Below are positions 1,646 through 61,140 of a DNA stretch of 64,000 nt, piece after piece. The DNA comes from Taxawa tesnikishii (nom. ined.) (Eukaryota; Ascomycota; Dothideomycetes; Dothideales). A model generated the notes under the pieces. That model did no database searches, was not told the origin of the DNA, and saw only the letters and a list, made by a program, of their open reading frames with translations. How positions within the stretch are numbered: position 1 is the first letter of the stretch; every line of letters begins with the position of its first letter. The position numbers were made by a program, and so were the translations under genes. The stretch lies in the NCBI GenBank assembly GCA_030247885.1, contig JAPDRO010000003.1, positions 620,001 to 684,000 of the forward strand, written 5' to 3'.

Positions 1646-3098
1646 TCAAGTGTATGAGTTGGCATCGCATGTGAACGCCCCACGTACAGTGCCCGCATTG
1701 TACTGGTCGACGATATCCGCAATGCTGGAGTAGGTACCGCAGCCGAGAACAGCAATGCCGATCAAGAAGCACATTGCGTTGAGGACCGACAACGTTATGT
1801 TCTTCCATCCACGGTACCATGGACCCTCCTTGATCAGCTGAAACCAGAACAGCGCTGGGAAGTAAAAGGTAAAACCGCTGCTGAACAAAGACGAGATGAT
1901 ACCAAGTAAGTCGCCGAAGAATGGGATGGCCTCGGCGACAACCCAAGCAATGATAATCTGGACGATGAGAATGCCAATCCAAACTGCCCATCCGGCCTTG
2001 GTGTTAATGAAGCGGATTGGAGAGTTCTTAAAAGCGCGGCCAAGGATGTAACGGCCAGCGACTGTGGCGTTGATACTTCCGGAGATAAAGATGACTGGAA
2101 GCGCAATACCGAACGCGACACGAGAGACGACATGACCAGCAGAGAGCAGAGCAGGGCTACTGACACTTTGTCCGACGAAAGCGTAGACCAATGCACCGGT
2201 CACCGTGTAGATGAAAATCTCGATCAGGCCGAGAGCCCAGATGGACTTGACGTAGTCCTTCGGTGTGTGAAGTTCAGACATGAAAGAGAACTGGCAGACG
2301 GCGAAAGAGTAGGCGAACACGATGTTAGTAACGGCATTGAAGGCGGACGAGAAGCTGATGTCCTCTGGTGGCCAGGCACTCCAGTTGACAGCAGAGAGAC
2401 CGCCGGGTGCATTGTGGGCCTCGACACCAGTTGCGATGATGGTGATGCCAATAGCGATGATGATGGAGGCGAAATCGACATAACCCAGAATGGCGAACTC
2501 GGCGAAGGTGGGTGGGATTGCCAGCAAAAGAGGAGGACTGCAGAGATGACAGCCCATACCAGAGCACAGATATTTCTGTCGTCGACAATGCGGATCCAGG
2601 CAATGGTTCCGGTCAGAGTATGAGATCCAACCAAGAGTACCAAAAGAGAACGAACATTGCGCCGGTTAATTCGTATCCAAATCTGCCCCAGATCAATCGG
2701 ACCGCATCGGCGTAGTGTTCCACATCCGGAAACTTGAGCTTGACCTGACCGACGACGTAACTGGTATAGATAGCGATGAGCCCCAGTCCAACCGAGAGTA
2801 TCGTTCCAGCAACCATTCCAACAGCAGCAAAGGCGCTGGGAAGGGAAAGCGAACCCAGTGCAATAGCCTCGACAATCAAGCAGATGGTCAACCTCTTCCA
2901 ACCCAACTTGTGGAACTTCTGCTCGCCCTCTTCGACGCTCGGCTGGTTTCCAAGCTCATTCTTACTGCCGTTAGAGAACTTGTCGCTGCCGTTCTCGTAT
3001 TTTGGAGGACCATGCTGATGTGGGGCGGCGTAATCGTTCAGCGCTGCATTCATTGCTGAGGCCATAGCTGTTGGGAGGAGCTGCTCAGGAGCAGGCAC
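1646..3098 (-). CDS. AAAP-family amino acid transporter (Mtr-like)
   Basis: A polytopic membrane protein of the amino acid/auxin permease family (Aa_trans), close in style to the Neurospora neutral amino acid permease Mtr. It likely imports amino acids by proton symport at the plasma membrane. A hydrophilic N-terminus of about 65 residues precedes the first membrane segment (ICLIVEAIALGSLSLPSAF); about ten more follow, including the family-typical GSHTLTGTIAW and IPPTFAEFAILGYVDF regions. The protein is spread over three frames with no room for an intron. A one-base loss at each of two four-base runs (2642-2645 and 2526-2529) accounts for this, and 1453 bases plus two is exactly 485 codons. 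The start at 3098 is the first ATG; a second lies 11 codons in. Substrate is not determinable. Confidence 0.85.
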
Positions 3099-4613
3099 TG
3101 GGCGTGCAAAAGAACGAGCGAGTCAATAGATGTCGCGTAATGTAGACAGATGCTTGATGTGTAGATGAGAGGGAAGAGGGAGAGAGAAGGAGAGAGACGA
3201 AAAGAATGTGGACTCCAACGGAACTGTCACGGAACAGTGGGTCAGACATTGCGCGCTATTACCACATGGGGCCGTTGCGTTGGTAAGAGAAAAATATATA
3301 TCCACTCCTAGAAGCATCTGTCGGTGTTACAGCGGGACAATGATGCCTGTCGAATCGAGCGACCGGATTCGGACCTGACTACCGTTTCTGTTTTTCCGAC
3401 AACAGTGTAGCCATTCATTGTGACGGCATATCGCAATTTATAAGCCGCCTGGAGTTGTTGCTGCGCGAATGCGGACAAAATTTTGAATGACGCAGGAAAG
3501 AAGAAAGATTGGAGATCTGACCTCGCGTGCCAAGATGGCTTAACGGAGCTTGCTCCCGCGGTTGTTCAGAGCTTGATCCGAGCTTGGCCCTCGAATGTTG
3601 AACCGATTAAAAGCGCTGGTTGGCCCTCGGAAACCGGCTCAAAGTACTCCGTTGTGGAAAATGCGGTTTTGGTGCCGTGATGGTTGGCATAGGTACGAAA
3701 CCCTCACATCATTTTGCATGCCTGTCAGGGTAATATTTGTACCTCGACCGAATCCCGCATAAAATGTCCTGTTTCTTCGGGATGAGAGACCAGCCTCGCT
3801 CTCGCCCTGTTTCTCCGGCATCGGAAAAGCTGACAAGGACTTTGTGAGGATGTCGGGACAAGCGAAGCCCAACCTCTGTTCTTTCAAAGGCCCGCCTGCT
3901 TCCTGCCCCATCCACCATCACTTGTCGATAAAGCTTCTTGGATTGCAAGTGGCACGTCGCGAAAGACCGACAACCCAAATGGCTCCGCTTTCGTCGCCCG
4001 GCCAGGTTGGATGCGAAGAACATCTCCACAAGGGACTTTGATCCTTACTCCATGGGAAATGAGTCGCGTGACAACCAAGATATCTGGCAGCTGCAGATCG
4101 TGTTGAAGAGCTCGTGTTGAAGAGCTCGTTCGAGTCATGGCTCCGCTTGAAGAGGCACATGTCGACGAAAGAGCGAAAGAGTTCCTGTCAGCCGACTGAA
4201 GCCGTTGCTAGCCGGCTCTTCTAGGACACGTGCCATGTGTTGAAGAGAACAAGACGCAGTGCGTTCTTGCAATGTCTAGCGTGGAGGCCTCGGATGTCTT
4301 TCGCTTGCACTGAGCAGAGACATGCATCCTGGACCATCTTGTGTTATGATTGACAGCATATAGTATACCTCACATGCGTCGCCGGAACACTTTCGAGATA
4401 AGAAGCAGACAGCTTCAGTGCGCTGGTATTCCATGTTCAGGTCTTTTTTTATCTCGATGATCGACACGCAGTGGGCTGGTACACCGTAGGTCGCAGAAAA
4501 GGATGTTCCCAGGCCATTCCCTCGCGTATATTCATAGCTTTGCTTCTCGCGATCTTCTGCTCGTTCTCTTTCCCATTTCATCAAGCGCTCAACCCTTCCA
4601 GCATCAACCCCTC
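3099..4613. other. Intergenic region, no gene recognised
   Basis: About 1.5 kb upstream of the transporter and downstream of the ABM gene. Open frames of 60-113 codons occur on both strands but overlap each other, lack domains and show no credible exon structure. The only structured element I see is a short tandem duplication at 4100-4127. Confidence 0.45.
4100..4127. repeat. 14-bp tandem duplication
   Basis: The 14-base unit GTGTTGAAGAGCTC occurs twice head to tail without mismatch. Part of the unit (GTGTTGAAGAG) recurs near 4230. It lies in apparent non-coding DNA and no function is evident. Confidence 0.8.
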
Positions 4614-7303: not shown

Positions 7304-9115
7304 ATGCCTGAGAACGAAAGCTGGAAAGACATTGCACGCCGTAAGCAGGAGCAGCGGGATGCCGCAATCCCGGCTTCCTGGCGTCTACAATCCAAACCTG
7401 GCGCCAACCGTGTTAAAGTCCTTGCCGTCCCAAGAGAGTGCGGTATTCTGACCAAGGAAGAGATCGCCATCACCGAAGATTACGATGCTTGTGGACTTCT
7501 GGACGAGCTGGCTTCGGGGAGGTTGAAAAGCATAGATGTTACCACAGCTATCTGCAAAAGGGCAGCAATTGCACACCAGTTGGTATCTCTCACTTTGTCG
7601 TTTTACATCACCCCTCTACTTTCCTTGGTGCTGTAGTTTCCGCTGTCACTGCTATCCATTTCTCGTATGCCATGTGGAGAGAACCCCGACTTACTCTCCA
7701 AGTCAAACTGTCTTACAGAAATTTTCTTCGATTCCGCGCTCGAGCGAGCCCGCGAACTGGACGCCCACTTCCAGAAAACCGGAAAGCCGAAAGGACCATT
7801 GCATGGACTTCCCGTTTCCTTGAAGGACTCGTTCCGTGTCATCGGCCACGATGCATCTATTGGTATCGCATCTCTGTGTTTCAAGCCCTGCAAGGTCAAC
7901 TCTACGCTAGTCGACATGCTGCTCGACGCAGGCGCCGTCCTGTACTGCAAAACGAATGTCCCGCAGACACTCATGGCGCTCGACAGTCACAACAACATCT
8001 TTGGCCGTACTTTGAACCCTGCCAATCTCCGCTTGACGGCAGGAGGCAGCTCAGGAGGCGAGGGCGCTCTTGTCGCGTTGAGGGGAAGTATTCTTGGCGT
8101 AGGCACTGACGTGGGAGGTAGCATCCGCATTCCCGCCATGTGCAATGGGCTCTATGGCATTAAGCCAAGTCACGGACGAGTGCCCTATGCCGGTCAAGAA
8201 AACGGAACCATCGCAGGAGCGGAAGTGCTGGGGATCAGGGCCTCGGCCGGCCCGATCGCGCACAGTGTACGGGACTGTGAATTACTCATGCGGGTAGTCG
8301 GAGATGGTCGAGCATGGAACTGGGATCCAGAGGTCGTCCCACAATCTTGGAAATTACAGGCTCCTTTGCATGCACAGCAAGATTCCCAAAAGCCAGTTGT
8401 GGTTGGTGTTGTACGGACCGAAGGCGTGACGACGCCATTGCCACCCATCGCGCGCTTCATGGACGAGGTCGCAAATACGCTGAGAAAGACATCCTCAACC
8501 CCCGCGTCGAGGTGGTTGATCTCGACTTAACCGACCTCCTCTCTAAATGCCAGTCCCTCGCTAATGCATTTTTTCGATCGACGGAGCGAACCACATGTTC
8601 GACCTGCTAGAAGCCACCTCCGAGCCTCTATCGCCATGGCTGCGGACGCGACTTCGACGTCGACCGCGCGCAGATCTGTCTCGTGTGACAGAGTTACAAG
8701 CGCGGCGCACTGAACTCCAGACCGCTTTCTTAGATGTCTGGCGACGCCACAATCTTGATGCCATAGTGTGCCCCGTCGCACCGCACCCTGTTCCCGAGGT
8801 CGACAGGTGGAATACCGCATCCTACACCAGCGCGTTCGTACTGCTGGACTACGCCGCGGCGACGCTGCCGGTGCGGACGGTGAGGCCGGGAGATCTAAAG
8901 GGCGAGGTCGAGGAGGGAAGCCATTGAGTAGCTGGGATAAGTACAACCGCGAGCTTTGGACGAAGGTCGATCGGAGCGTGTATTTGAACTCGCCTTTGTG
9001 CGTGCAGGTTGTGGGTCAGAAGCTGATGGAGAAGAAACTGTTGGGCGTTATGGGTGTTTTGGACAAGGTGTTTAGGGACTCGAGAGACGTTGGGAGGGAA
9101 CAGGCGAAGCTCTGA
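7304..9115 (+). CDS. Amidase signature family enzyme
   Basis: An amide hydrolase of the amidase-signature family (fungal acetamidase/fatty acid amide hydrolase type). It hydrolyses a carboxamide with a Ser-cisSer-Lys triad. The Lys lies in GLPVSLKDSF, the cis-Ser in TAGGSSGGEGAL and the nucleophile Ser in TDVGGSIRIPAMCNG. Exon 1 is 7304-7582; a 120-bp intron (GTATCT to CCAAG) follows; exon 2 runs to 9115. The C-terminal part changes frame three times: near 8488, at the T6 run 8569-8574 and at the G3 run 8915-8917. Each is repaired by one added base, and exon length plus three equals 565 codons. The rest of the fold is well preserved, so base undercalls are more likely than decay. The natural substrate is unknown. 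Confidence 0.85.
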
Positions 9116-11041: not shown

Positions 11042-13433
11042 TCATTCGCTGTCCTCATCCTCGTCCTCTGCTTCGTCTTCCAGATCCTCAACCTCGTCCT
11101 CATCATCCTCCTCCTCCTCATCAGCCTCGCTTTCCATCCCATCGGCGTCCTCGCGCCCTAACTTCCTCTCCGCCTTTTCCTCTTCCCGTTTCTTCTCTTC
11201 TTCCTTCCGGCTCTCCTCGAGCAGTCTCGCCTTCTCCGCCCTTGTCTTCCTCTGGCCGACCACGAAAGCGCCAAGAGGAGTCTTCTGCCACTCCACTTCC
11301 TTCAAAAGCCCTCAACGCCCGCACGGTCGTTTGGCGCAAAGTCCACCTTCCCTCTCCTTTCTTCTATCCACTTGGTGTTTGCATCAAGCTTCTGTACCAC
11401 GAGCGACATCTGGCCATTGACTTTTCCGTTCTTGTTGGAGTTCTTTCCATGCATACCCGTATCCTTGGACCAGCGCTTGAGCAGTACAATCACTGGAAGC
11501 GCAAGTTCAGGGAAGGCGATAGACTTGGCCCAGAGAACAAAGAATTCGCTGAGCAACTCCGCAACCTGCTCGCCTACGCCGTCCTGGTATACGCGCGTCC
11601 TGAGATAGCTCTTCGGCGCGCGGATCGCGGTTGCGAAATCCAGAGGCTTGAGCGTGCTAGCCACGGGCGCCTTGCGCATCTCGGCAGAGTTAAGAACTTC
11701 GTATAGCGAAGCGGCAAGCGGGATGTATGTGCCTGTTGACAGGCTGACGCGCAGCAAACTGCGGATCAGATGGAAACGCAACGGGAAGTAAGTTGCTGTC
11801 GGAATCAACCGCATTGCGCCCAACGTGACCTGTACGACGGGATAGATGAGCGGTCGGAGAGCAGAGGCTGCGCCCTTCTCCGCTTCTGCGAGGCTGTCAC
11901 AGTGCGCTGCGAGCACCCGCGACCAGAAATCCAAGGAGTGCACGAATTGCCAATTGTAGATAGCCTTGTATGACTCGTTGGAGTTGTTCGTAATGCTACT
12001 GCGGAGGTGGATGGCGAGTTGTCGAATGAAGGTAAAGCCATTTGTATAGCCGACGCTCGAATCAATGCCCCAAAGTTCTGCTGCCGAGTTCTTCATGAGA
12101 TTCACGCCAGAGATGGTATGCACAGTGGTGTTGCGGCTGCCCTTGACCAGTCCCTGATAAGTCGTCTTGAGCACTGATTCTCGGATTCCCGGGTCTCCGA
12201 TCACGACAAGCCGACGAAGGACAAGGAAAGCAGCGATTCGGCTAGCTTCTGCACTCGAGGATTCGGACCATATCGTGACTACCGTACGTGCAAGGTCACG
12301 CACCAGCTTCTTGAAGGAGAGGATGTAGGGCAGGAGAGGTACGAGCGAAGACAAAGTAAGTCGGAGAGTAGCGGCGTCGGATAGATGGTTGAGGAGGTGT
12401 GTGATGGAGGTGACATGCGACTTGAGGAGGGGTGTGAGAGTGCGATACTTCTTAGAGTCGGTCGGGACGCTTCTAAATTAGTCGTCAGCAGATAGTCTCG
12501 TGCAGTCGGAGGGCGAAAAACGTACATCTTTCCGGACTCCTTCTCTTTGACCGGCAGATGGTGCTGCAGAACTTTCGGCACCTGCTCAAGCGCAACTACT
12601 AACAATTCATGGTATGCATCCGGGTTCGATATCGAGTACTTGAACTCTTTGTCCTCTTCGTCCGAGATGTGAGCGGCAGCCCTGAAAGCGAGCACGACCT
12701 CTCTTGTAGCGCGCAGAGAGTGCTGCTCCGTCATGGAGCGCTTCCACTTGTTGACCAAAGTCTTCGTAATCTCGTTGCCGGTGCTATCTTCGGCTTCATC
12801 CTCCTCCTGCTTGCTGCTCTTGCCCTTTTTCTGCTTCTTCTTGATCGGTCCCTCTTCTTCCGCCTCGCTTCCACTCAACGCGTCAATTTCTCCCAGATCT
12901 GCGTCCTCAAACTGCAGGAGCTCTGCATCGTTTTCCTGAAGGTACTTGTAAAATTCGGGATCCTTCTTGGCCAAAGCATCCATCTGCTCCTTGCTCATTC
13001 CGATGTCATCGTCGTCGTTGTCCGATCCAGGTTCGCTGCCAGCTTCAACCGGATTTTGTTCTGTCGATTCGTCGGCCGATGAGGCTTCAGCATCCTCCTG
13101 GGCGACGTCCTGAAGTTTTCTCTTGCGGCCGTATGTACCTGTCGCCTTTCCAGCCTTCTTTTGCGGCCTAGACTCAGTAGGAATTTCGAAACCGCCTTGA
13201 AAGAAGTCATCCACGTTCATTTCTTCGAAAGCGTTGTTCTTCTTCTCCTCCTTGCCAGACGGACGGCCGTCTGCCTGCTCTGCATCTGCCGGCGCATTGT
13301 CCTGGGCTCTCCTCGCCTTCTTCTTTTCCTTCTGCTGATGCCTCTGCTTGATCTTTGCAAACTCCTTGCGGCGCTTGATCGTGTCCTGAAGATGGTTCTT
13401 CTCGAACTTCTTGGTCGATTTCTTCTGCGCCAT
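11042..13433 (-). CDS. NOC2: Nucleolar complex protein 2, ribosome biogenesis factor
   Basis: Noc2 pairs with Noc1 and Noc3 to escort 60S pre-ribosomes from nucleolus to nucleoplasm. The start MAQKKSTKKFEKNHLQDTIK is family-typical. A Lys-rich and acidic N-terminal third (coiled, nuclear) is followed by the helical Noc2 domain with SGVNLMKNSAAELWG, YNWQFVHSLDFWSRVL and RFHLIRSLLRVS. The protein ends in KTPLGAFVVGQRKTRAEKAR and a Glu/Asp tail. Exons are 13433-12526 and 12472-11042; the 53-bp intron runs from GTACGT to CTAATTTAG. The frame breaks at a four-base run at 11304-11307, just before the conserved C-terminal block; adding one base makes 780 codons (779 aa). The start was placed at 13433 because the frame upstream lacks similarity. 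It is divergent from VPS28 across 200 bp. Confidence 0.93.
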
Positions 13434-13633
13434 GTTGTATAATTGGTAGGCGAGTGATGTCCAAGTATAAGAGGCGGCTTCGGACTTTTTGTGGAAAATC
13501 ACAAGCTTCATTCTCTCCTCCGACGGAAATCTCCGGCCGCCGCAAAATGCGGAGAAGCCCAATGCCGAGCATTCATCAAAGTGCTTGAGTGACGTTCCAT
13601 CGCGAGTCTTCCACAACAGAGGCCAGAGCGAGA
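13434..13633. promoter_or_regulatory. Shared divergent promoter of NOC2 and VPS28
   Basis: Only 200 bp separate the two start codons, which face away from each other, so both promoters and 5' leaders must lie here. No obvious TATA box is visible. Confidence 0.6.
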
Positions 13634-14455
13634 ATGTACGCGCAGCAGCAGTTGGCATATGCGCCAACACCTTACAGTTACACGCCCACCTCATCGCTCT
13701 CGGCCACTGTCAACGTCGATGAGGTTAGCCCTCGTGAGCCTTCCCTATACAAACTCTGGGACTGACCTTCGTCAACAGGAAGTCAAGCTAGCCAACAACT
13801 CTGCAGAAAGAGACCTGTACGATTCGCTTGCCGAGATCTACAGTATCGTTGTCACCCTCGATGCGCTTGAGAAAGCCTACCTGAAAGACTCGGTCGCGGA
13901 GAATGAGTATACGGAGACGTGCAGCCGCTTGTTGAAACAATACAAGTCCAACCTCGCCGATGAGAATGTCGCACGAGCTTTTGGCGACCTGGATACCTTC
14001 AAGCTCGAGTGGAGTGTACGTTGTCAAGTGTAGCACGTGTCAGATATGAATGGCTGATGGTAGCGCAGATGGAAGTACCTCGAGCTACGGAGCGCCTGCG
14101 CATCGGTCTACCTGCCACAGTCGAAGCACCTTTACACCGTCCGACGTCGCAAGCCCCTGGCGCTGGTCTAGCAGCAACGCATATTGTCGCTGCATCAGAG
14201 AACTTTATCACACTGTTCGATGCCATCAAAATGAACATGCTCTCGAAAGACACGCTTCATCCAATCCTTGTGGAAACAATTCAGGCGGTCAACAAGGTCA
14301 CCGATCGAGATTTCGAGAACAAAGGAAAGATCATTCAATGGCTTATCACCCTCAACCAACTCAGAGCTGCCGAGGAGCTTTCGCCGGACCAAGCCAGGGA
14401 ACTGCAGTTTGACATGAATCTGGCATATGATGGATTCAAGTCCATACTGGAATGA
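13634..14455 (+). CDS. VPS28: ESCRT-I subunit Vps28
   Basis: Vps28 is part of ESCRT-I, which sorts ubiquitinated cargo into multivesicular bodies at endosomes. Three exons (13634-13723, 13779-14015, 14069-14455) give 237 residues, close to yeast Vps28 (242). The N-terminus is a Tyr/Pro-rich stretch (MYAQQQLAYAPTPYSY). The ESCRT-I core-binding domain follows (ERDLYDSLAEIYSIVVTLDALEKAY). The C-terminal four-helix domain, which contacts ESCRT-II, includes ASENFITLFDAIKMNML and ends DMNLAYDGFKSILE. Intron 1 begins GTTAGC, a less common donor; intron 2 begins GTACGT and ends GCGCAG. The reading frame is intact. It is divergent from NOC2. Confidence 0.95.
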
Positions 14456-14652: not shown

Positions 14653-15863
14653 ATGGCGAAAGGTTTGCGCGCAGAAGATCTGGGATTTGAACTTGAGGAG
14701 GAGACGTTGGATGGTTGGTACATCCGGAGCTGCATCAACATGACCAGCACGACGTGCTGACCGCTTATCCTAGTGTTGGACCTACCTCAAATACACACGA
14801 AACCCTCAGCCGATAAACTCCTCGATACTCTCTCACTCCTGAGCCTCGAACCAAGATCTTGGGAAGGCACTCCGCCGCTAACTCCCGGATCAAATACCCC
14901 GCGGTCTGCGAGTGGGGCAACAACTCCAGCTCTGCGGCCCAAAAGAAGGTCAACCCTCAAGGTGTACCACAATACCTTACGAAAATCATCTCAAGCCCGC
15001 TTGCTTGGATAGAACACGATGAAGACAAAGAGAAGGTGTGGGATGTTGCTTCCGTCAGACTTAGCGAGCGGTCAGGCAGGACAGGGATGGGTGCCATAAG
15101 CCGGACATTCAGAATACCTACTGCAGCCGAGCCGACAAACAGTGGAAGTACACTACAAACAGTCATTGCGACGTCGGGCACTCAGGACACATCGCTAGAT
15201 ATTGAGATACACGAGCCGGCTTTGACTGCGGACAACTTGGGATTGAAGACTTGGGCATCATCCTTTGTGCTTGCGAAGAAGTGGCATGCTATTCGTGATC
15301 AGATTCCTCTACCAAGCGAGCAGAAAGAGACCGAAGGAGCAACTTTTGCCATCCTGGAGCTGGGCGCTGGAACCGGGTTAGTCGGTATAGCGGCGGCTGC
15401 GGTATTGCAGACTTCAGTAGTCCTAACCGATCTGCCTGAAATCGTACCAAACCTTGAGCGTAACATCAACGCAAACCTGGATACCATCTCTTCCAGGGGC
15501 GGGTCCGCACGGGCAGCAGTACTGGATTGGACCGAGCCGGAGAAGTTCGACAGCCTCGGCGCATGCTTTCCACTCGTTGTAGCTGCGGATCCGATCTACT
15601 CGAAAGAGCATCCGAAATTGCTTGCACAAGCTGTTTCCAGTCAGCTGATGAAAGGCTCGGACGCTAGAGTCATCGTGGAGATGCCGATTCGCGATGCCTA
15701 CGCTGAGGAGAGAGCAGCTTTCAGAAACTCTATGAAAGACATCGGGTTAACAACGGTCAAGGAGGAAACTAAGATTGGTTATGACGACTGGAGTGAGGGC
15801 ACCAGCGAGGAGCTTAGTGAGGTGGAGTGTTGGATGAGCATTTGGTCATGGAAGGAACCATGA
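14653..15863 (+). CDS. Protein-lysine methyltransferase, EFM2-like (Methyltransf_16)
   Basis: A seven-beta-strand methyltransferase of the lysine-methylating Methyltransf_16 family; the layout fits fungal EFM2-like enzymes that modify translation elongation factors. Exon 1 (14653-14713) encodes MAKGLRAEDLGFELEEETLD; the intron ends CTTATCCTAG at 14773. The N-terminal extension contains a Ser/Pro-rich linker and GVPQYLTKIISSPLAWI. SAM motif I is FAILELGAGTGLVGIAAA, motif II lies around VVLTDLPEIVPNLERN, and post-motif FPLVVAADPIYSKEHPK follows. The C-terminus is VECWMSIWSWKEP. The frame shifts at 14959-14962 (AAGG), where one added base restores 384 codons (383 aa). The assignment to EFM2 rather than a relative is an inference. 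Confidence 0.8.
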
Positions 15864-27000: not shown

Positions 27001-27114
27001 GGCCGTTCTCCAGAGCACGCGATCTTCCTCTTCCGACATGTCAGACAAGCCGCACTAATCCTTCTACGTTTAGGATGCGGAGCTCCATGGTTGGTAATGA
27101 AGCGCAGTTTTTGG

Positions 27115-27187
<73 letters not shown>

Positions 27188-45817: not shown

Positions 45818-48381
45818 ATGGCTGCAGCTACCATACCGTCCGGCGGCATTTCCCTCCATGGGGCGCCGAATAGCCACGACAGCGATAGTTCCACGTTTGC
45901 AAGATCTGCTGTGTTGCTCCATTTGAACGAGCAGGTAATTAGGGATATCAAGCAATGTTCTCAGGCGGGGAAGACTGTTCAGCTCCTCGCTGGCAAGTCA
46001 CCGGTATGCTTCACTTCATGTCAAGCGTCCCATATCCACCTCAGCCGTGCCATTTGCTGAGTGAAAGGACCCATAGAGGTTAAGAATAGGATCTAAATCG
46101 TTGGATATCCGCGTCACGCCTGAGACGTTTCGCCATGAGCTCTACACGTCACAGGGCGCGTCCCACGACTACTCATTCACTGCGCTGATAACGCAGCAAG
46201 CCGACTTGAAGACGACGGAGAAGGTCGTGGGAGATACTGCCGGAGCAGATGCTGCGTTGGCCGCGCTGAAACAAAACTTGGCATCTTATGCACAAGAGAA
46301 GCAAGCCAAGCAGTGAGTGAATTGCGGCTCTAAACTGATTATGGAGTTTTGTTACTGAACGGAAGAAATAGGGCGACAATAAGCACTTCAGTCCTTCCTG
46401 GAAGCAGAAAAGGAGCCTCGATGCCTAACTCTCTCCTTCGTCCAAACTCTCTGCTCCACGCGAATCGGTCACAGCTCAGCAATCCCTCCCTCCATACCTC
46501 CACCCCCAGATCTAGTGCTGGACCTACGTCTGCACCCATGACGAACACCCAACATGCGGTGCAGAAGGCTCTTGTTCACTTGCTTGCAGTCAAGCCTCTG
46601 AGCGTGGAGGACATTGTCAAGAAGACCCGTATCCCGAAGGATTCATGTGTGGCGTTGTTAAAGAAGGTTGGCCAGCAGGACTCGCCGAACTCGGGGTGGT
46701 GCTTGGCAAATAAAATGTTCAAAGACTTGGATGTTTGGAACTTCAATTACCAAAAGGAGGAGGATAGGCAGAAAGCCATCGACAATGCTGTTCGCGCCTA
46801 CGACAGGCTGAGGGTGGAGAAACAGAATTACCTGTGGCAGAAATTGCTGCCAGTCGAAGAACGTGGGAAAGGAAAGATTCTTTCACGGTTGCCCACGAGC
46901 AACGAAATCGACAAGGTCGGCACTCCAGGCGCAGGCGCGACCCCTCTCCCCTCGGGTGACGATGTTGCAGGGAAGACACTCAACGCAAGGGGTACACCAA
47001 GCCTGGAGCCCAAGACTACACCTCGGATGGGTGCCACTGCTATCGGACGTGGGGGATCAAGATCGGGAAGCTTTTGAAAGACTCAAAGAAGAAGCATGCC
47101 GCGGAGGAGGCCAAGGAGAAAAAGAGGAGGGAGAAAGAGGCTGCTGCCAGTGATATGGAGGGAAGAGTGTCAAAGCCAAGAGAGATACCCAAGAACCAGG
47201 TGAAGAGGATGCAGGCCAAGAAGCCGGTAGTGAAGTCTGCTGAGGTCGTGCACAGCTCGGAGGAGGATGAGGGCGAGATCGTGGAGCATGCCGAGAGGCC
47301 GACAAAGGATACGACAGGTGGCTTACAACAGTCGAACAAGGAGGCTAAACCTAAGCCATTGGCCACGGAGCCGAGGAAGGTCAATGGACCCAGTTCACAA
47401 TCACGCACAAAACCACGATCTGGCACGCTCTCGGATTCTAGCGATACTTCTGCAAGGTCTGCTTCACAAGCAAAACCAAAGGCCGCAGCACCTCCAAAGG
47501 ACCGGTTCACACCTTCAGTAACGAAGAAGTCAGAACAACTATCTGCGGCTTCAGCGGCGAGAGCCAAAGATCTGCCGGCATCAAAGGAGACGCCCTTGCA
47601 ACGCCCGGTGAAGAAGGTTTCAGCCACCGCTTCCTCTCAGCAGACCCAGTTGAGTCCCAAGAAAGGCAATACGAAGCCGACCAATCCTTCTCCGCTGGGG
47701 GCCACACGCCCTCGCAACGCTTCCGACGTTTCAGAAAAACCTGCAACCGGTTCTCTGACATCATCGAAAGTCACAAAACCAACCGCACCACCAGCGACCG
47801 CGAAGATTGCCAAGGCAGGCACCGCCAACAGCAGGCCGGCAGAAGCAAGCGGCGCGCAGAAGCAACCTCCGGTCTCGAAGAAGCGTGCTCTTCAAGACGA
47901 CGGCGGTACAGCTGACCCTCCACGTAAAGCTGCCAAGGGTACTCCGAGCAGCATCGCGAGATCAGCCGAAGTGCCACGCACTAACGGCCACACAACGAAT
48001 ACGGACAATCAGCTCAAGCGCAAAGCAAACGACCTCTCTGCCTGTTCGCACTCACCCTTGCCCAAGCACCGCAAGACGGACTCTCGAGCCAGCAGCTCAT
48101 TAGCCACGACCACTGCCCGCACAAGCCCTGACAACGAGGGCTGGCAGAGCGAGCACAGCTCCAGCGCCTCGTCGACCGTGCAGTTGAGCTGGGAGCGCGC
48201 TCTCGATGAGAGCGATAAGTTCAGGAATGAATATTATCCGGCGTATACCAAGCTGTATGATAGATTGCAGGGGATGGACCCGGCGGACGTGACCGAAGAG
48301 GATGCGCATAAGTTGTGGAGGATGCATCATAGGCTCCAGCAGATGAAGAAGGAGATCAGATTGGCGAGGGAAGACGAGTAG
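45818..48381 (+). CDS. RNA polymerase II elongation factor ELL-like
   Basis: An ELL-family elongation factor, a nuclear protein that suppresses pausing by RNA polymerase II. The N-terminal ELL domain (SAVLLHLNEQVIRDIKQCSQ, GKTVQLLAGKSP, LDIRVTPETFRHELYTSQGA) is followed by a winged-helix block (HAVQKALVHLLAVKPLSVED, DVWNFNYQKEEDRQKAIDNA). A long Lys/Ser/Pro-rich linker precedes the occludin/ELL-like C-terminal helix (WERALDESDKFRNEYYPAYT, LYDRLQGMDPADVTEEDAHK, MHHRLQQMKKEIRLARED). Exon 1 is 45818-46003, exon 2 about 46090-46312, exon 3 46372-48381. The frame breaks at T4 47072-47075. The exon 1/2 junction also lacks one base, probably at 46089-46090. Exons plus two equal 807 codons. Confidence 0.85.
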
Positions 48382-49378: not shown

Positions 49379-50478
49379 ATGTCTTCCTCCGAATCTTCCC
49401 AGCTGTCACTTGCCATCCTCGATGACTGGGCCTCCGTCGCCGAGCCTCACTTCCAACAGATCCCGGATCTGGACGTCCACACCTACCCCACCACGCTCAA
49501 TCCTTCCAAGCCTTCAGATCTCGAGCAGCTCAAGGAAAGGCTCAAGCCGTATGCCATCATCAGCACGATGCGCGAGCGTACGCCGTTCCCAAAATCGCTT
49601 CTCTCATCCCTTCCCAACCTGCGACTCCTTCTCACGACCGGAACCCGCAACGCGTCCCTCGACCTAGCCACGTGCAAAGAGCGTAACATCATCGTGGTCG
49701 GGACCACCGGATCGCTCCCTCCAGACGCCGACGCAAACGCAAACAAGCAAGCATACCCACCACCCCTCCTCCAGGCTTCGACAGCACGACCCAACACGCC
49801 TGGTCCCTCCTCCTCTCCCTCACCTCCCGCATCCCGACCGACAACACCCGCCTGCACACCCAGCCCTCGGCCTGGCAGTCCGGGCTGAGCGTGCCCCTAG
49901 GCGGCCGCACCCTCGGCATCTGCGGGCTGGGCAAACTGGGCACGAACATGGCCCGGATCGGCGCGCTGGCGTTCGGGATGAAGGTCATCTGCTGGAGCAG
50001 CAGCCTGACGCAGTCCAAGGCCGACGAGGCAGCCGCCGGAGCCGGCCTGGGCCCCGGCGCCTTCGAGCTCGTGGCCAAGGAGGACCTGTTCCGTCGCGCG
50101 GACGTCCTGAGCCTGCACTACGTGCTCTCGCCGCGCAGTCGTGGCCTCGTGGGCGCGCAGGAGCTGGCGCTGATGAAGCCCTCTGCCATCTTTGTCAACA
50201 CGGCTAGAGGGCCGCTGGTCGATGAGCAGGCGCTGTTGCAGGTGTTGGAGAAAGGTGGGATTAGGGGCGCGGCGCTGGATGTGTTCTGGGAGGAGCCCTT
50301 GGGTCCGGAGAGCCCGTGGCGCACGACCAAGTGGGGTGAGGGAGGGAGGAGTCGGGTCGTCTTGAGTCCGCATATGGGGTACGTGAACGAGGGGACGATG
50401 AACCGGTGGTATCAGGAACAGGCCGAGACGGTTCGTAAGTGGATCAAGGGCGAGGAGGTGGGGAACCGCATGGCTTGA
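49379..50478 (+). CDS. D-isomer-specific 2-hydroxyacid dehydrogenase
   Basis: An NAD(P)-dependent oxidoreductase of the D-2-hydroxyacid dehydrogenase family (glyoxylate/hydroxypyruvate reductase, phosphoglycerate dehydrogenase kin). The N-terminal substrate domain has LAILDDWASVAEPHFQQIPD and ISTMRERTPFP. The Rossmann domain has GRTLGICGLGKLGTNMAR (GxGxxG). Catalytic residues lie in FVNTARGPLVDEQ (Arg), DVFWEEPLG (Glu) and LSPHMGYV (His). It is a single exon. The frame changes at the C4 run 49763-49766, between the two domains; one added base gives 367 codons (366 aa). The ATG at 49379 sits in a good context (GACACCATG). Substrate not determinable from sequence. Confidence 0.9.
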
Positions 50479-50620: not shown

Positions 50621-50625
<5 letters not shown>

Positions 50626-50832: not shown

Positions 50833-52335
50833 CTACAAGTAAACCTGCCTTGCGTCTTTGGGATGGCTCTCGTTGGGACAATACGGGCATTTGAATCTCC
50901 TCCAGGTGCAAGATGTCAGCTCATCATTCGTGGGTGATTGGATCAGATGGTGGACTTACTTGTTTCCCCTGCTGACCTTCTCCAAACTCTCCTTGGCAAT
51001 GACGTGCCCGCACGGCATCATCATGGGTGGATTCAGATCGGTGCCCTGCTCCTTACTGACCGGGCAGACAAAGATGGAGTGGAAGAGATATGATGGCGGA
51101 AGTGGAATCTCAACGGGAAGCTCGTTCGCGCTCGTCCACTGACCGCCCGTCTTATCCATGACTCGCTCCAACTTCTCCAACACGGGTAACGCAATGCCGC
51201 CCGCGGTGACGGCGGTGTAGAGCGGACTTCTGTCGCTGAGGCCTAGCATGCCGCAGAACTCCCGTACGAAGCTATTGGCTGCGTCTTCCCAGGCACCATC
51301 GTTGAAGAAGACGTGCTTGTATGGCGAAGATTCGAGCGAGGGGTAGAAGACCAGCGAGCCCAATAACGGAAATGAATCGCCGGTGAAACGAGTTGAGAAG
51401 CTCGGGAACGTCTCGCGCGCATATTGCAATGCCCGAAGCGGTCCGCTGAAGTTTTGCAGGCCTTCACCGTCCTGCACAGCGTCCCGGTCTTGCCCTCCAC
51501 CGCAGTATAACTCCACGAACCGCAGCCTGCAGAGCTCGAACTCCAGATTGGACCCTCTGGCCTCCAACGCTTCACTGTGCTCTTTCGCCCACTGTATGGC
51601 CGGATCCAGATTCCGATCGTTCCGCAGAGCGCGCAGGATGTGGTACATCTCCGTAAACCTCTCTTGCAGGCCTGGAGACCTTTCAAAGCCGACCCCACCT
51701 TCTTCACCGCTGTCCATCGCATCCACGTCCGCAGCCAAACCGGCAAAGTCGTGTGCCCAGCTCCTCTCCAGCATTGCATCTTCCTGGATGATGCTTGGGA
51801 CTGCAGCAGACGCTGATGAAGCGGGCATCTCTTCTGTGTGAGACGAAGGTGGTGGTTTGGCGTTTACTTCGTCAATAAAGGTTGTCGCTACCCCAAACTG
51901 CCCTTCTCGAAGCAAATGCATAGCAATGGCGCGGTTCGTGAGCGTCGGATGTGACGAGAGCGGGTCGTTCGAGGCAGATGGTAGGACTAGGTTCTTGAAC
52001 TTCTTGTCGAGCGCTTTGCCGTACTTGTTCTGTGCTGAATAGACCTCCTGCATGTCATCCTTGACCTTGTCGAAGGATTGCTTCACAGGGTTCCTCAACT
52101 TGGCAAGGGTCATTGAGGCACTGTCAGGATCTGTGTGGACGTATTGTCAGTAACTCGAAGTTGTGGAGATGGAGAGTATACGTGAGATACCTGCAGCGAC
52201 GGCATTCCTTGCTTGCACCAGCGAATCTATGAGCTTTTGGACATCGTTGATGGTCTTCTTGAGGTTTCCTTTCTTCTCCAAGCGCTCATGCTCGGTTTGC
52301 AATGCCTTCATGGCATCCATCGCGTCCGAGGCCAT
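50833..52335 (-). CDS. RMD5: GID/CTLH E3 ubiquitin ligase subunit RMD5 (GID2)
   Basis: Catalytic RING subunit of the GID complex, which ubiquitinates gluconeogenic enzymes when glucose returns. Exon 1 encodes MKALQTEHERLEKKGNLKKT and IDSLVQARNAVAAD. Exon 2 has ASMTLAKLRNPVKQSFDKV, the LisH/CTLH region (HPTLTNRAIAMHLLREGQFG, DPAIQWAKEHSEALEARGSN) and the CRA-like part (PLRALQYARETFPSFSTRF). The last exon completes the degenerate RING: VCPVSKEQGTDLNPPMMMPCGHVIAKE, shown here only by its key residues Cys, Cys and His, then FKCPYCP. Introns fall at the AAD junction (about 52124-52190) and near the RING (about 50905-50960). The frame stays open upstream of 52335 (QVFQLPPPPPPGLAETGQ), so the true start is probably further upstream, in another exon not resolved here. 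Confidence 0.9.
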
Positions 52336-52959
52336 GGCGGCAAAGCGCTGTCCTGTTTCAGCCAGACCTGGTGGGGGTGGGGGTGGGAGTTGGAAGACCT
52401 GAGAGGATTGGGACGTGAGATAAGTTGATGGGCCGAGGTTGGTCTATGCTAGCTCAAGCGTGGTACATGCTGGCTATGGTTACGGTGCCCCAGGCTCACG
52501 AGCCATAGTGAAGGTAGCTGTCGGTTGCTGCTATGACGCTCGTGTGCGCGTGTACTCGGGTGTTCGTGTACTCGGGTAGCGCTCTCGGCCCGTGCGTTGA
52601 TCTCTCTTGGCAGGTCCTCTACACTTTACTTTACCAAGGTCCTTTGCAGGGAGAAACAGAAACAGGAACAGAAACAGAAACAGAACACCAACAAGTACTT
52701 TGTAGCCGACTGCTGTGAGCCGAGCCGGACCGTCCCGTTCCTTTCCTTTCCTTTCCTGTTCGACATATCTTGTCGAGGTAGGTGGTTGACGGACTGGCCT
52801 GGAAGCGGGCTTTCCGACGCTCAGGACCAGGACCAACTCAATCCAGCAAGCAAATGCTGAGATGATGACCATCACAACGAGAACAATAGGAAGCAGCTCT
52901 TCGTACCATCGTCAGCAACATCTTGCACTCTCCAATATTCATCCAGCGCGTCTTGACGA
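52336..52959. promoter_or_regulatory. Divergent region between RMD5 and the STB6-like gene, with simple repeats
   Basis: About 620 bp holding the RMD5 5' end and the promoter of the STB6-like gene. An imperfect GAAACA hexamer tract lies at 52652-52686 and a CTTTC pentamer tract at about 52738-52758. Purine/pyrimidine-rich tracts like these are common in fungal promoters, and a role in either gene is an inference. Confidence 0.55.
52652..52686. repeat. Imperfect GAAACA hexamer repeat
   Basis: About six consecutive units of GAAACA or GGAACA in the region between two divergent genes. Confidence 0.8.
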
Positions 52960-55677
52960 ATGAGCACCAGAGCTTCATTGGATGCGGACCGAAGATGGCA
53001 GAGCCGTCCGCAGACTGCCGCCTCCCATATTGATGCGTCGCCCGCCGATAGCTCGCCCTCCACAAGCCTTGGGACAGGAGCCCCAAGTGGTGATAGGACC
53101 TCATCGCACAGGAGAACTGCAACTGCACCGACTGCATCAAGTGGCCTCTCACACCAGCGATTTGTCTTGACGGATCCTGTGGCGTTCCGGTATGTCACGC
53201 CTCCTTTCCCAGTACGCCCAGGCACGATGAGCTTATACCTCGATTAGCTACCTGGCGGAGGATCCGTCGACAACAGTACTAGAACAGCGTCGTGAATTAT
53301 CCGGATACGAGTGTTACATTGTTGAGCAGTGGGCAACCTCAAGGACGCATCCGACCTTCTGCATCACCACTTACACCGGCGATCCCTCCAACAAGGTCAT
53401 TGTGGGGGTGCTGAGCGTGCCCACGGATGAGACGACATGGTCGCAGAGACTCAAAGTTTATTTCAAGGCGCTTAATCAGTACCACGCACGGCGACGAGAA
53501 ACTCCGCTGGGCATATTGATGATTACCAACCTGTCTGGTTTCCCTTCTTCACTGACCGTCATTCCCGTACCGGAGGGCGATTTAAGAGCACACCGATACG
53601 ATTTCTTCGTGAATGAAGATCTCAAGCGGCTGGGCTGCTCCGGTCGCGTCGGCCTGACCCTAGCACAGCCCAACAACGCTACCGTGGCAAAGTTCCACCA
53701 GCTGTACCGGACGAGCGACAAGAACCAATTGTACGGCTCCGTCATCGAACTTGTAAAGCTTTGTCAGGCCGCCTTGAACTTGTTCGAGAAGCTAGAGATT
53801 GACTATGCTGACGGACTGCTCTGTGATATGACTGAGAAGGCCATCAACGATTGGTGGACCGAGATCGGGACCGATATCTACAACACCGAGCCTCATGATG
53901 GCATTCTGGGACCGACCACTGTCGCTGCTCTTCTAGGCTTACTCATGGGCGCCCGTAACCGTTTGAACGCTGTCGGTGCCCCTGTGCCCAAAGATGCATT
54001 CGACGTGGACGGGATGAAGAGAGGCATAGCTGTTTTCCAGAAAAGCCAGCATATCAACCGCAACAGGCGTCTAGACCGTCAGACTCTCAACCGACTGCAC
54101 AAATCTTCGGCAAAAGCAGCCAGTGCGGAGGGCTGGGCTGTGCCAAGAGTACCCAGGGCAGTAAAGTCCACCGTGGCAGAGTTGAGCGGAAAGGGTGGAG
54201 AAATGGTCATGGACGTTGTTGGCCGCCGGGACAAGGCCGGAATTGCAGACATCGAGACGTGCGACATGGAGCGATTCGTACAGCTGATTTACGGAGAGCG
54301 ATGCAAATGGCTGTGGTATGGCAGACCACTCAAGCGGACAAAGGCCGCTCCCAACGGCGATAAGACGCAAGATCATGACCATCTTGTATTTAAGCCGGAC
54401 GAACATGGTGGTTTCAAATGGACCAGTCGCAAGCCCACCATGTATAGTCAGGAAGCGAGAAGACCGGATTTGTTCGACGATGAGGACGGGCGTTCCACGC
54501 TGCACAGTGAAGACATGGACAAAGAGGATCCCAGTGTCAAGAGTCTCGTCAAACGCGCCACAGGCAGCTTGATGGGTGAGAAGCGTAGCGGCATTGGCCG
54601 TATTAAGGATGCCGTTCGAGGTCACCATCACAGACAGTCGAAGGAGTATGGTCCTCACTATTCCGTCGAGGACAGTGATGTGGCGTTGTCGCGTCCCTCT
54701 TTGCAACGTGCGCGCAGCACCCCGTCAGCAGTCACACCAGCCCTCGTGAAGGCAGTTTCACACAGGCATTGCTCGATAACAAACATCGGAAAGCCGAAGA
54801 TGATGCAACACAACCGCACCAGCCTCTGTTCGCAGACACTATCATGGAAACACCGGAGAAATCCAAAGACGACCTGAGGCCTGATGCGAGTCTCCCTCGC
54901 TCGGAACCAGGAGGAAGGTTCGACGGCGGAAACGACAGACTGAAAGTGTCTGGTGCAGAATCAGCCTCCGACACTGCCACGGCGGAACCTTCTGTGACAG
55001 GCTCAATATACGACGGTGACGAGCTGGAGGAAGTCATGCCTGGCGTGCGTGATACCTCCCAAGTGACCGGGATCCTATTAAGACGCCGCAACTCCGACAC
55101 CGTATTCTACAATTTAGCGACGCGCTCCAAGCCTGAGGAGTCTTATCCCCGTCACCTCAGTTTCAGCGAAGCGGAGGACAGCACGCTTGACCGCACGGCA
55201 TTGGACTCCTGCCCAGACTTGTCGGCATCGGCAACAGTACAGCAGCAATATGAGTACGAAGTACAAAGAGCGGAAAACGCCAAGGCTCTACGTGCGGCAA
55301 TGGCAGATCTCGAGCGCAACGAATCGGCGTGGACGGGCCAGCAAGTGGACAACCTGCACGGATATGTTGCGCAAGCGGACAACGACCAGCAGGATCTGGA
55401 GGAGTTATATCACGCGCCGTACCACCATTTGCAAGAGCTCAAGGACGTCGCGGCGGGCTTGTTGAGGGAGGAGAAGGAGGCTTCGGAGGAAGGAGGCAAG
55501 GAGTTGGAGACGCTGGCGGCGAAGCTCGAGTACGAGATTGAGTCGTTGAGGGGCAAGGTCGGGGATATGGAAGTGGGGGTCAAGGACTTTGAGCGCGCGG
55601 TCGCGGCGGTCGAGGAGAGAGTGGCGGATTTAGAGATGGAGAATGGGAGAGGGGGACGGGGTTGCGTGGTTTCTTGA
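52960..55677 (+). CDS. STB6-like protein with C-terminal CaaX box
   Basis: An 886-residue protein resembling the fungal STB2/STB6 family, named after Sin3-binding in yeast; its molecular function is unclear. Exon 1 (52960-53189) encodes a Ser/Thr-rich start. A 58-bp intron follows (GTATGT to CGATTAG), then 53248-55677. The conserved N-terminal half includes RFVLTDPVAFRYLAEDPSTT, ECYIVEQWATSRTHPTFCI, SVPTDETTWSQRLKVYFKAL, NEDLKRLGCSGRVGLTLAQP and KFHQLYRTSDKNQLYGSVIE. The middle is Ser/Asp-rich. The C-terminal 150 residues form coiled coils (LEYEIESLRGKVGDMEVGVK) and end in CVVS, a farnesylation-type CaaX box. One frame break at 54765-54766 (GG); adding one base gives 887 codons. Confidence 0.75.
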
Positions 55678-57374: not shown

Positions 57375-60300
57375 ATGATGCGGATCCCTATTCGGGAACA
57401 GCTCGGCCTTGTCATACTGTTGGCATCCTTGGTTGGACTGAGTGTCGTTGCAATCGCAACATGGGTTAGTTCTGCGCTTTTCAAAAATGCCAATGGACGC
57501 GTCTAACGCTGTATAGGTGACGAACCACAGCTTCGTGCTGGATATCCGGTAACGCTCTCTTGACACCCTTGTTACTGAGCATGACTGACTCCCGCTTCAG
57601 GTCCACCAGACTCTCTCTCACAGCTTCCCTCAAAGCTGCCCAACTTGCCTCGAATCTCGCCTTGATGGAAAACAGTGTGCAGTTCGTCGCCAGTCGTGTC
57701 CTGATACAGAATGCCCTGCAAAGATACAACCGGAACGGAAACAACACCGCTCAGAACTGGGTCAATGCGCAATCCGACATGCAGGCAGCCCTTAGTGGAG
57801 GCGGAGGCGCCGTCGGACAGACGCTGTTGATGCAATCGCAAGTGTTCCCGAGAGACGACAGTGGTCCGATGGGCCCTTACAGCGTTTTGAACACTACTGG
57901 AGACCTGCAAGCACCCACAATCAAGCTACCGTACCTCTCTCCTAACGGCAGTGAGGTCTTCCTCGGCGATCCTGATTACGGTTATCCTCCGGAACTCTAC
58001 CCAAACTTGACATACAGCTCTGTCCCGTACAACAGCACTTTCAGCATTGCACATGCCGACTTCAACGGAGATATCTTAAGCCCTACCAGTGCGACGCTGA
58101 TGCTCGGGCCATGGACGATCAACGAAACCTTTTCGCTGCTGTCGTTGACCTTGCCGATCATCAACAACACTTCCAACATAGACGTGCTGGGTTGGCTCAC
58201 AGTGCTGCTAGACGCGCGCTTGATCAGTGATGTGGTCAACAGCCCCGAAGGTCTCGATGACACAGGAGAGACGCTCCTTCTTGGTCCCACGAACAGAACC
58301 AACCATTTCCCTCCAGGTGTCTTGTATGATGATGGGGATACGACCCGTGCCGACATGTCTACTCAGGAGGCTCGCTTCGTTATGCCACTCATCAGCAACT
58401 ACAGCCAACGCCACCCAGGCCACATCATAGGATCGTCTAACTTACCGTTTCCAGTCGAGAGTTATCCCGCTCTGGCTCTAGCCTTGACCCACGATACGAA
58501 CGCTATTAACAATGCCGGAAGTCTCATCTCGACAAAGAGTGAGAGCGGACAGAAGGTGTCGGTCGGGTATGCGATGCCAGATACTGCTATCTGCGACTGG
58601 GTTGTTATAGTAGAGCAGCTACGCAGCGAAGTTTGGCAGCCGATCAATCACCTACGCAATATCCTCTTGGCATGTGTCTTCGGCACTGCTGGGTAAGTCG
58701 GTCACCAATTCCTACCTGAGCTGCGCTGATGGACCTACAGTGCGCTCCTACTTCTAGCATTCCCTCTCGCGCACTACGCGAGTCGGCCCATTCGCAGACT
58801 AAGAGATGCCACGAAGAGGAGTGTGATGCCGCCCGGATACAGTGACAGCACGGACAGTCTGTCCGGTTCCTCCCTTATCAGTGATTTGGATGAGGAAAAC
58901 AACAACAACAACGGGAACCGGGATATTGCACGCAAAGAAGGCTTTCTTGGCTCTCTGGCAATATGGAGAAGAGGAAGAGAAGCAGACAGGGAAGCACGCA
59001 GAGAAAATGCAAGACGGCATCAATTCCGGATACCAGGAAAGGTCAAGGACCGGAAACATTTCGTCAAGGACGAGCTTACGGACCTCACGCAGACGTTCAA
59101 CGAGATGTCGGATGAACTGATGATGCAGTACGAGAAGTTGGAAGAGAGGGTGCGGCAAAGGACCGCCGAACTTGAGTTGAGCAAGAAGGCTGCAGAGGCG
59201 GCGAACGAAAGCAAGACACTGTTCATTGCAAATATCTCGCACGAGCTGAAGACACCACTGAACGGAATCTTGGGAATGTGCGCCGTTTGCATGCAAGAAG
59301 AAGATCCAGTCAGGTTAAAGAGGTCTTTGGGGATCATCTACAAGAGCGGAGACCTCCTGCTCAACCTACTGACTGATCTCCTCACTTTCAGCAAGAACCA
59401 AGTCGGACAGCAGCTTTCTCTCGACGAGAAAGAATTCCGGATCCGCGACATTAGTTCGCAAATCTCTGCAATCTTCGACAAGCAGGCCAAGGAAAGCCAA
59501 ATCGACCTCCGTATCGAGTACTCCGGCAGCCATACTGGGACTGGGCTTGTTGACCGGCCCGAGATGGAGTATGGTCCTTTTGGCACCGGCAGGGTCAAGG
59601 ACATGATTTTGTGGGGCGACCAGCACCGCATCCTTCAAGTTGTCATCAATTTGGTCTCCAACAGTTTGAAGTTTACGCCGGCCGGCGGTTCGGTCATTCT
59701 GAGGATAAGGTGTCTTGGGGAAGCTCCAGAGGTCAACAGTCGTAAGGGATCTTTGCAGTCCAAAGGCTCGAAGCAACAATCTAGCAGGCATAAGAATTCG
59801 GACGCGTCTCTGGCGGTTCCTAACAAGCGGGCGGACACTGCCAACGAAATCAACGTCCACGGAAAGGGCCTTGGCAATTTCGTGGTACACGAACTGGCGG
59901 TGTCTGCACCACCAGGAAGGACACTGATGTTCGAGTTTGAAGTCGAGGACACCGGGCCCGGTATTCCTGAGCATCTCCAGCAACGCATTTTCGAGCCGTT
60001 TGTCCAAGGTGATCTTGGCTTGAGCAAGAAATACGGCGGTACTGGTCTTGGTCTCAGTATCTGTTCTCAACTGGCCGGGTTAATGCGCGGCACAATCAAC
60101 CTTGAGAGTGAAGTCGACAAAGGAAGCACTTTCACCATGCGCATACCTCTTCGTCACCTCCTCAGCAGGGCAGACAGCACCGCCAGTTCCAGCGTTGATG
60201 TGCCTATAGGATCGGAACCACACAGTCGTCGGACTTCTCTAGAGGACCCCTGGACACCGGGTAGACATAATCGCAACGGCGACAGCGAGTCTCGCAAGTC

Positions 60301-61140
60301 GTTTGCTTCCGCAAACAGCGCGCCTACCGCAGTCGTCGCCTCTCCCGTTTCCGCAGCCGCTCCCTTCGATGCTGACTCCCAGCCTCGACTCGTCGGTCTT
60401 AGCCAGCCCTTCTTCGCTGCCAGCCAACCGATGGAATCGCCCGGGTCGCAGTCCAATGCCATGGACAAAATCACTGCCGACGCACAAAGGTCTGGCAAGA
60501 TTCGTGTGTTGGTTGCTGAAGACAACAAGGTCAACCAAGAAGTGGTGCTACGGATGCTGAAGCTGGAGGACGTGTATGATGTGACGATCGCCAAGGACGG
60601 ACAAGAAGCTCTCGATCTGGTCAAAGAATCCATGAGTGATCCAAGTCGGCAACCCTACAACCTCATTTTTATGGACGTGCAAATGCCCAACCTAGACGGT
60701 CTGCAGAGCACTCGTCTAATCCGCGAGATCGGCTACAGTGCGCCCATCGTTGCGCTGACAGCCTTCGCCGAGGAAAGCAACGTCAAGGACTGCTACGACT
60801 CCGGCATGAACTACTTCCTGAGCAAGCCCATTAGACGTCCCGCCCTCAAAAAGTTCTCAAGGAATACTGCGCCCCAATTCCGGAAGAAAATGAGGAAAAC
60901 CAGGCTCCCTCCAGCCCACCCATAAGCCCTGGCACTGTAGTGCCGCCTGCAAAGAACCCACCGAGCAACTCTACAGCCGCGCTCGATGCAGCAGCTACGC
61001 GGACTTCCGGCACAAACACGGCTGTCGTATCAACCAACTCGCGACCAAACTCCAGACCGGTATCACGGGCGGCCTCTCCTAGAACATCTGCAGACCGCTT
61101 CTCCAGAACGGCGTCTCCGCGACCCTCGACGGATCGCTGA
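57375..61140 (+). CDS. SLN1: Sln1-type hybrid histidine kinase, osmosensor
   Basis: A membrane histidine kinase at the top of the HOG osmotic stress pathway; in yeast Sln1 passes phosphate through Ypd1 to Ssk1. Four exons: 57375-57464, 57517-57548, 57601-58692, 58741-61140. An N-terminal TM segment (LGLVILLASLVGLSVVAIA) is followed by a large extracellular domain with many N-glycosylation sites, then a second TM (LLLLAFPLA) and a HAMP-like linker. The H-box FIANISHELKTPLNGILG has His near residue 571. The ATPase domain has NLVSNSLKFTPAGG, VEDTGPGIPEHLQQ and KKYGGTGLGLSIC. The receiver domain has LVAEDNKVNQ and IFMDVQMPNLDG with Asp near residue 1050. A break near 60853 is restored by one base, giving 1205 codons. 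Confidence 0.95.

What the first reader, a model, noticed from the sequence alone, without database searches (positions are those of the whole stretch)
1646..61140. Systematic one-base losses at homopolymers in 15 conserved genes, pointing to assembly undercalls
I count 28 places where a conserved protein changes frame in mid-domain and adding exactly one base restores it. By gene: transporter 2, amidase 3, membrane protein 3, NOC2 1, EFM2-like 1, sugar porter 2, DUF1989 5, Zn2Cys6 2, OSBP 2, RAD50 1, WC-2 1, ELL 2, dehydrogenase 1, STB6-like 1, SLN1 1. All are losses, none an insertion, and most sit in a run of two to six identical bases. Exon sums plus the missing bases are divisible by three in every gene I summed. 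NOC2 is essential in yeast, so chance pseudogenes are unlikely. The likely cause is homopolymer undercalling; a biological cause is far less likely.
Basis: partly seen in the sequence, partly recalled or inferred. Interest (0 to 1): 0.75.

Follow-up and report, generated by a model that had tools for sequence, protein, structure and literature searches.

The report
Missing homopolymer bases from assembly error
Many genes in this fungal stretch look broken because the assembly most likely leaves out one base in runs of identical bases, which is a known kind of sequencing error and not biology.

Summary
The window lies in a 29.4 Mb, 34-contig fungal assembly. Eight come from a decoder that could equally call gains (8 losses, 0 gains at penalty 9). 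Thirteen come from reading proteins in three frames, two of them weaker. Seven are not confirmed (membrane protein 3, DUF1989 2, sugar porter 1, ELL 1). The same defect occurs elsewhere: in 150 Pfam matches from ten families, 7 of 50 neighbouring pairs leave no room for an intron, and all 7 shift as one lost base does. They include one of nine CCT/HSP60 genes, one of three RNA polymerase second subunits and a B-family DNA polymerase. Intron-size gaps spread evenly over the frames (11, 11, 12). Runs of six or more equal bases are scarce in the window (7 seen, 37 expected) and elsewhere (39 against 113), also in DNA not called coding, with a sharp drop from length 5 to 6 that E. coli lacks. Homopolymer undercalling in a long-read assembly explains this best. 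The finding is a quality warning, not a discovery.

The parts
1657..3095 (-). amino-acid transporter (Aa_trans, PF01490); the frame changes twice between about 2650 and 2520, both as one-base losses
   Evidence: Pfam 1-93 in one frame and 137-409 in another; the middle reads in the third frame by eye; Pfam on the short middle piece found nothing
7417..8988 (+). amidase (PF01425); three one-base losses, the last one weaker
   Evidence: no Pfam match in three frames of either strand, nothing I could read
11044..13520 (-). NOC2 (PF03715); one loss near 11305, at the end of the matched domain
14800..15850 (+). EFM2-like lysine methyltransferase (PF10294); one loss before the domain, near 14.95 kb
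19000..21330 (+). sugar porter (PF00083); one loss near 20.5 kb; five other frame changes fit GT..YAG introns, two are open
22300..23300 (-). DUF1989 protein (PF09347); three losses readable of five claimed
24030..27250 (-). Zn2Cys6 transcription factor (PF00172, PF04082); one loss near the C-terminus and a weaker one before the zinc cluster
29152..33062 (+). oxysterol-binding protein with ankyrin and PH domains (PF01237); two losses near 31.1 and 31.6 kb; the frame change near 32.2 kb fits an intron
37846..41590 (-). RAD50-like protein (AAA_23 and SbcC Walker B matches); one loss near 40.05 kb
42786..44366 (+). WC-2-like PAS-GATA protein; one loss at the end of the PAS domain
46537..48378 (+). 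ELL-like protein (weak Pfam match, E 0.0062); one loss near 47.05 kb of two claimed
49411..50472 (+). D-2-hydroxyacid dehydrogenase (PF00389, PF02826); one loss between the two domain matches
53245..55641 (+).
57628..61140 (+). SLN1-type hybrid histidine kinase; one loss just after the receiver domain near 60.85 kb
13763..14452 (+). VPS28 with one intron, no frame break called at penalty 9 (in-window control)
27765..28722 (+). ATP12, no frame break called at penalty 9 (in-window control)
34313..37073 (-). SacI-domain phosphatase with one intron, no frame break called at penalty 9 (in-window control)
50958..52368 (-). CTLH/RING protein with one intron, no frame break called at penalty 9 (in-window control)
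62779..63941 (+). GH10 xylanase with one intron, running towards the window end, no frame break called at penalty 9 (in-window control)

Best explanation
The frame breaks are consensus errors of a long-read assembly that was not, or not fully, corrected with accurate reads. Base calling and consensus undercall runs of identical bases, so a run loses one base, and in coding DNA each loss breaks the frame. Shown here: losses at the sites that could be placed, position at short runs, presence on several contigs in housekeeping genes, and depletion of long runs also in DNA not called coding. Inferred: that the error is technical, and which technology made it. The cliff after length 5 suggests older nanopore chemistry, from general knowledge.
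For: Window decoder 8 losses, 0 gains at penalty 9. Of 50 neighbouring Pfam match pairs from ten families, 7 have no room for an intron and all 7 are losses, while 34 intron-size pairs split 11/11/12 over the frames. The broken genes include one of nine CCT/HSP60 loci and one of three RNA polymerase second-subunit loci; every first-look candidate was scored in those two searches. Runs of 6 or more: window 7 against 37 expected, sample 39 against 113, E. coli 44 against 50. Ratio of successive run lengths in DNA not called coding .247 .233 .242 .231 then .084; E. coli .224 at that step. A run of 4 or 5 lies within 12 bases of 5 of 7 junctions and inside the 74-base gap of a sixth; the seventh has 3 at most. 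Passages of PMC7500977 describe the same defect in nanopore-only fungal assemblies, removed with short reads.
Against: No reads were seen. In the sample the decoder gives 10 losses and 7 gains at penalty 9, 25 and 10 at 6, 5 and 0 at 12; the codon-only decoder gives 14 and 5 at 9. Of the 7 gains two are one place read on both strands and two lie in a GAG repeat; three are unexplained, and the sample losses were not checked one by one. Sample losses at runs of 4 or more are 4 of 10 at 12 bases (P = 0.035) and 2 of 10 at 8 bases (P = 0.2). Three runs of 13 to 16 G or C survive in the sample. PMC7500977 reports that run lengths were more often overpredicted. The rate in conserved domains elsewhere (7 in 109 kb) is far below 21 in the window; detection differs, but this is not explained in full.
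Confidence: 0.95

Rival explanations
1. The shorter runs are real and the cell restores the frame by minus-one slippage of ribosome or RNA polymerase at short homopolymers throughout the genome.
For: The contiguous events have the same sign, lie mostly at runs and occur in genes that the cell should not be able to lose.
Against: It would need efficient slippage at ordinary runs of 4 to 5 bases in many unrelated genes, and does not explain why long runs are missing from DNA not called coding, with a cliff from 5 to 6.
Confidence: 0.01
2. The genes are true pseudogenes, from decay of this region or genome.
For: Some window genes (amidase, DUF1989, transporters) should be dispensable, and DUF1989 has at least three breaks.
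Against: Losses without gains among the contiguous events, long open frames on both sides, and the same break in housekeeping genes elsewhere.
Confidence: 0.02
3. Part of the counted breaks are ordinary short introns misread as losses.
For: In the sugar porter five frame changes fit GT..YAG introns of 49-53 bases, in DUF1989 one fits; 7 of 28 claims were not confirmed.
Against: It cannot explain the seven contiguous cases, nor the transporter and first two amidase breaks.
Confidence: 0.02

Closest known systems
Homopolymer indel errors in nanopore-only fungal assemblies (Drechmeria coniospora, PMC7500977; passages seen)
   Same: Conserved genes broken by errors in homopolymers; fewer than one sixth of 305 conserved genes predicted full length in any of the three new genomes; run lengths corrected with short reads.
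   Different: There run lengths were more often overpredicted; here the contiguous cases are all losses. The technology used here is not known.
Indel errors in nanopore assemblies of filamentous ascomycetes at low coverage (PMC9453082; passages seen)
   Same: Homopolymer indels in conserved single-copy genes that break frames.
   Different: There none were observed in three genes at 100x coverage; coverage of this assembly is unknown.

Membership tests
homopolymer undercalling artefact | losses and no gains at the break points | tested here: met
   8:0 in the window at penalty 9, 7:0 in contiguous Pfam pairs; but 7 gain calls beside 10 losses in the sample, 3 of them unexplained
homopolymer undercalling artefact | breaks lie at runs of identical bases | tested here: met
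   6 of 8 window sites within 12 bases of a run of 4 or more, 13% by chance; sample 4 of 10 at 12 bases and 7 of 10 at 18 bases, 2 of 10 at 8 bases
homopolymer undercalling artefact | long runs depleted also outside genes | tested here: met
   non-coding here means not called coding by the decoder, and the expectation is geometric with E. coli as control, since no fungal reference was on hand
homopolymer undercalling artefact | spread over the assembly, housekeeping genes included | tested here: met
   seven breaks on six contigs: C1 (two), C3, C7, C12, C23, C30
homopolymer undercalling artefact | accurate reads show the longer run | not testable with these tools
   no reads and no named assembly
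pseudogene cluster | breaks of several kinds, confined to dispensable genes | tested here: not met
   one kind among contiguous events, and in RNA polymerase, CCT and DNA polymerase genes
programmed minus-one frameshifting | slippery site with a stimulatory RNA structure, in few genes | not tested
   no structure was folded; the breadth of genes speaks against it

The most novel reading that the evidence does not exclude
A fungus whose genome truly carries one-base-short homopolymers in many genes, essential ones included, and that restores the frames by general minus-one slippage.
Probability: 0.01. Interest if true: 0.9.

Novelty: not a real feature. Interest (0 to 1): 0.1.

Why it matters
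It matters as a quality warning: gene models, pseudogene counts and missing domains from this assembly are unreliable until it is corrected with accurate reads. Internal checks that need no reads (sign of contiguous frame changes, evenness of intron lengths over the frames, run-length cliff) helped to recognise it.

Tried and rejected
Rejected: a gain-loss pair in SLN1 called at penalty 6 (one frame stays open there). Rejected as losses: the frame change in OSBP near 32.2 kb (intron) and five in the sugar porter. A TAG in one CCT match lies at its first codon, so it is no break inside the protein. Pfam on the short middle pieces of the transporter and amidase gave nothing; only the amidase tail matched. 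Naming the species: a paper search for '34 contigs', nanopore, fungus and 29.4 Mb (three of four terms) listed two papers, neither on a matching assembly by title and abstract; the GH10 search against solved structures did not settle it. Rfam and tRNA scans of the window were empty. Paper listings were seen as listings only, apart from the two papers named, of which passages were seen.

Left out or set aside: one of 151 returned matches (PF00133, C1:573799-574083, which lies inside a larger match in another frame and may be a further break) was not entered; pairs more than 700 bases apart were not classed; 9 of 50 pairs have long gaps (4 of them in the same frame, 5 with the residue of a loss) and are ambiguous. 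The limit of 35 bases between 'no room' and 'intron-size' was mine; one HSP70 pair with excess 38 also has the residue of a loss and counts as intron-size. PF00083 and PF00501 were scored on their best candidates only (9 of 323 and 14 of 75). One sample stretch (L018) is wholly withheld and L023 holds 500 N; both were left out of training.

Full report
What was checked. The window is G000:C23:620001-684000 of an unnamed assembly of 29,367,862 bases in 34 contigs. By gene content (Pfam scans) it is a filamentous fungus, probably an ascomycete (inference). No reads, no relatives and no species name are available.

Decoder count in the window. I wrote a decoder with a periodic coding model, GT-AG introns and equal penalties for losing or gaining one base. 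Trained on the window and 18 other stretches, it losses and no gain at penalty 9 in 37 kb called coding; a simpler codon model also gives 8 and 0. The eight lie in OSBP (2), WC-2, ELL, dehydrogenase, STB6-like, RAD50 and NOC2, and the protein reading of each changes frame as a loss requires. The count depends on the penalty: 14 losses and 1 gain at 6, 1 loss at 12, none at 15. Four of the extra losses at 6 stand in place of introns found at 9, and the gain is rejected.

Reading by eye. Three-frame reading adds 13: transporter 2 and amidase 3 (net shifts also seen by Pfam), EFM2-like 1, sugar porter 1, DUF1989 3, Zn2Cys6 2 and SLN1 1. This part rests on my eye and partly on recalled motifs; the third amidase and the N-terminal Zn2Cys6 sites are weaker. 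So 21 of 28 claims are borne out and 7 are not confirmed. In the sugar porter five of seven other frame changes fit GT..YAG introns, and two (near 20.1 and 20.8 kb) stay open. Five window genes with Pfam domains show no break at penalty 9 (VPS28, ATP12, SacI-domain, CTLH/RING, GH10).

Test in the rest of the assembly. Ten Pfam families were searched. From 150 of 151 returned matches, 109,305 bases in all, I formed 50 neighbouring pairs and compared the DNA gap with the gap in the profile. Thirty-four pairs have intron-size excess and fall 11, 11 and 12 in the three residue classes, as introns should. Nine have long excess and are set aside (4 in the same frame, 5 with the residue of a loss). 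Seven have no room for an intron; all seven shift as one lost base does (excess equal to 2 modulo 3), none as a gain. They are one CCT gene, one HSP70-family gene, one RNA polymerase second subunit, one B-family DNA polymerase and three SNF2-family genes. The CCT/HSP60 search scored all 18 candidates and shows nine loci, the number expected for eight CCT subunits and HSP60 (general knowledge), plus one further match; the RNA polymerase search scored all 4 and shows three loci. So these broken genes are probably the only copies of essential genes (inference). Four junctions show conserved protein on both sides in neighbouring frames, meeting at a run of 4 or 5 equal bases. Of the three SNF2 junctions one meets at a run of 5, one (on C30) has no run above 3, and one is loosely placed.

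Homopolymers. Runs of six or more: window 7 seen, 37 expected from a geometric model; other stretches, about 190 kb of readable bases, 39 seen, 113 expected; E. coli K-12 50 kb 44 seen, 50 expected. In DNA that the decoder does not call coding, the ratio of successive run lengths is .247.233.242.231 and then .084 from 5 to 6; E. coli keeps .224. The depletion is therefore not tied to coding. Three runs of 13 to 16 G or C remain. Window losses lie within 12 bases of a run of 4 or more in 6 of 8 cases against 13% by chance; sample losses in 4 of 10 at 12 bases, 7 of 10 at 18 and 2 of 10 at 8; gain calls in 2 of 7 at 12, not more than chance.

Against. The decoder in the sample gives 10 losses and 7 gains at penalty 9, 25 and 10 at 6, 5 and 0 at 12. 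Two of the 7 gains are one place read on both strands, two lie in a GAG repeat, three are unexplained, so gains elsewhere in the assembly are not excluded. PMC7500977 found run lengths more often overpredicted (passages). The density of loss calls is about twice that of the sample (8 in 37 kb, 10 in 90 kb), and that of contiguous Pfam breaks is lower still; numbers are small and I did not test the difference.

Interpretation. One cause explains sign, place, spread and the run-length cliff: undercalling of homopolymers in a long-read consensus. Passages of PMC7500977 and PMC9453082 describe such errors in fungal nanopore assemblies and their removal by short reads or high coverage. General minus-one recoding and true pseudogenes are not excluded by reads, but the first does not explain the depletion outside called coding DNA and the second does not explain the breaks in housekeeping genes.

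Verdict. The finding is an artefact of a known kind.

Noticed in passing
L013 at 6862, L021 at 774, L022 at 5403: Isolated runs of 13 to 16 G or C in an assembly that otherwise has few runs above 5; they may be true runs or polishing artefacts.
   Followed up: no
window 19000-27250: A sugar porter, an L-rhamnose mutarotase (rhaM, PF05336, about 21765-22094, + strand), a DUF1989 gene and a Zn2Cys6 regulator lie together and may form a sugar-use cluster.
   Followed up: no
window 27116-27187, - strand: A repeat of 24 glutamine codons near the N-terminus of the Zn2Cys6 regulator; the proposed frame change lies between it and the zinc cluster.
   Followed up: partly
sample stretches L009-L028 against the window: Loss calls are about twice as dense in the window as in the sample (8 in 37 kb, 10 in 90 kb called coding), which may point to uneven coverage.
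   Followed up: no
G000:C1:572421-574634 and 573799-574083: A PF00133 match lies inside a larger one in another frame and may be a further frame break; the stretch L034 was fetched but not examined.
   Followed up: no
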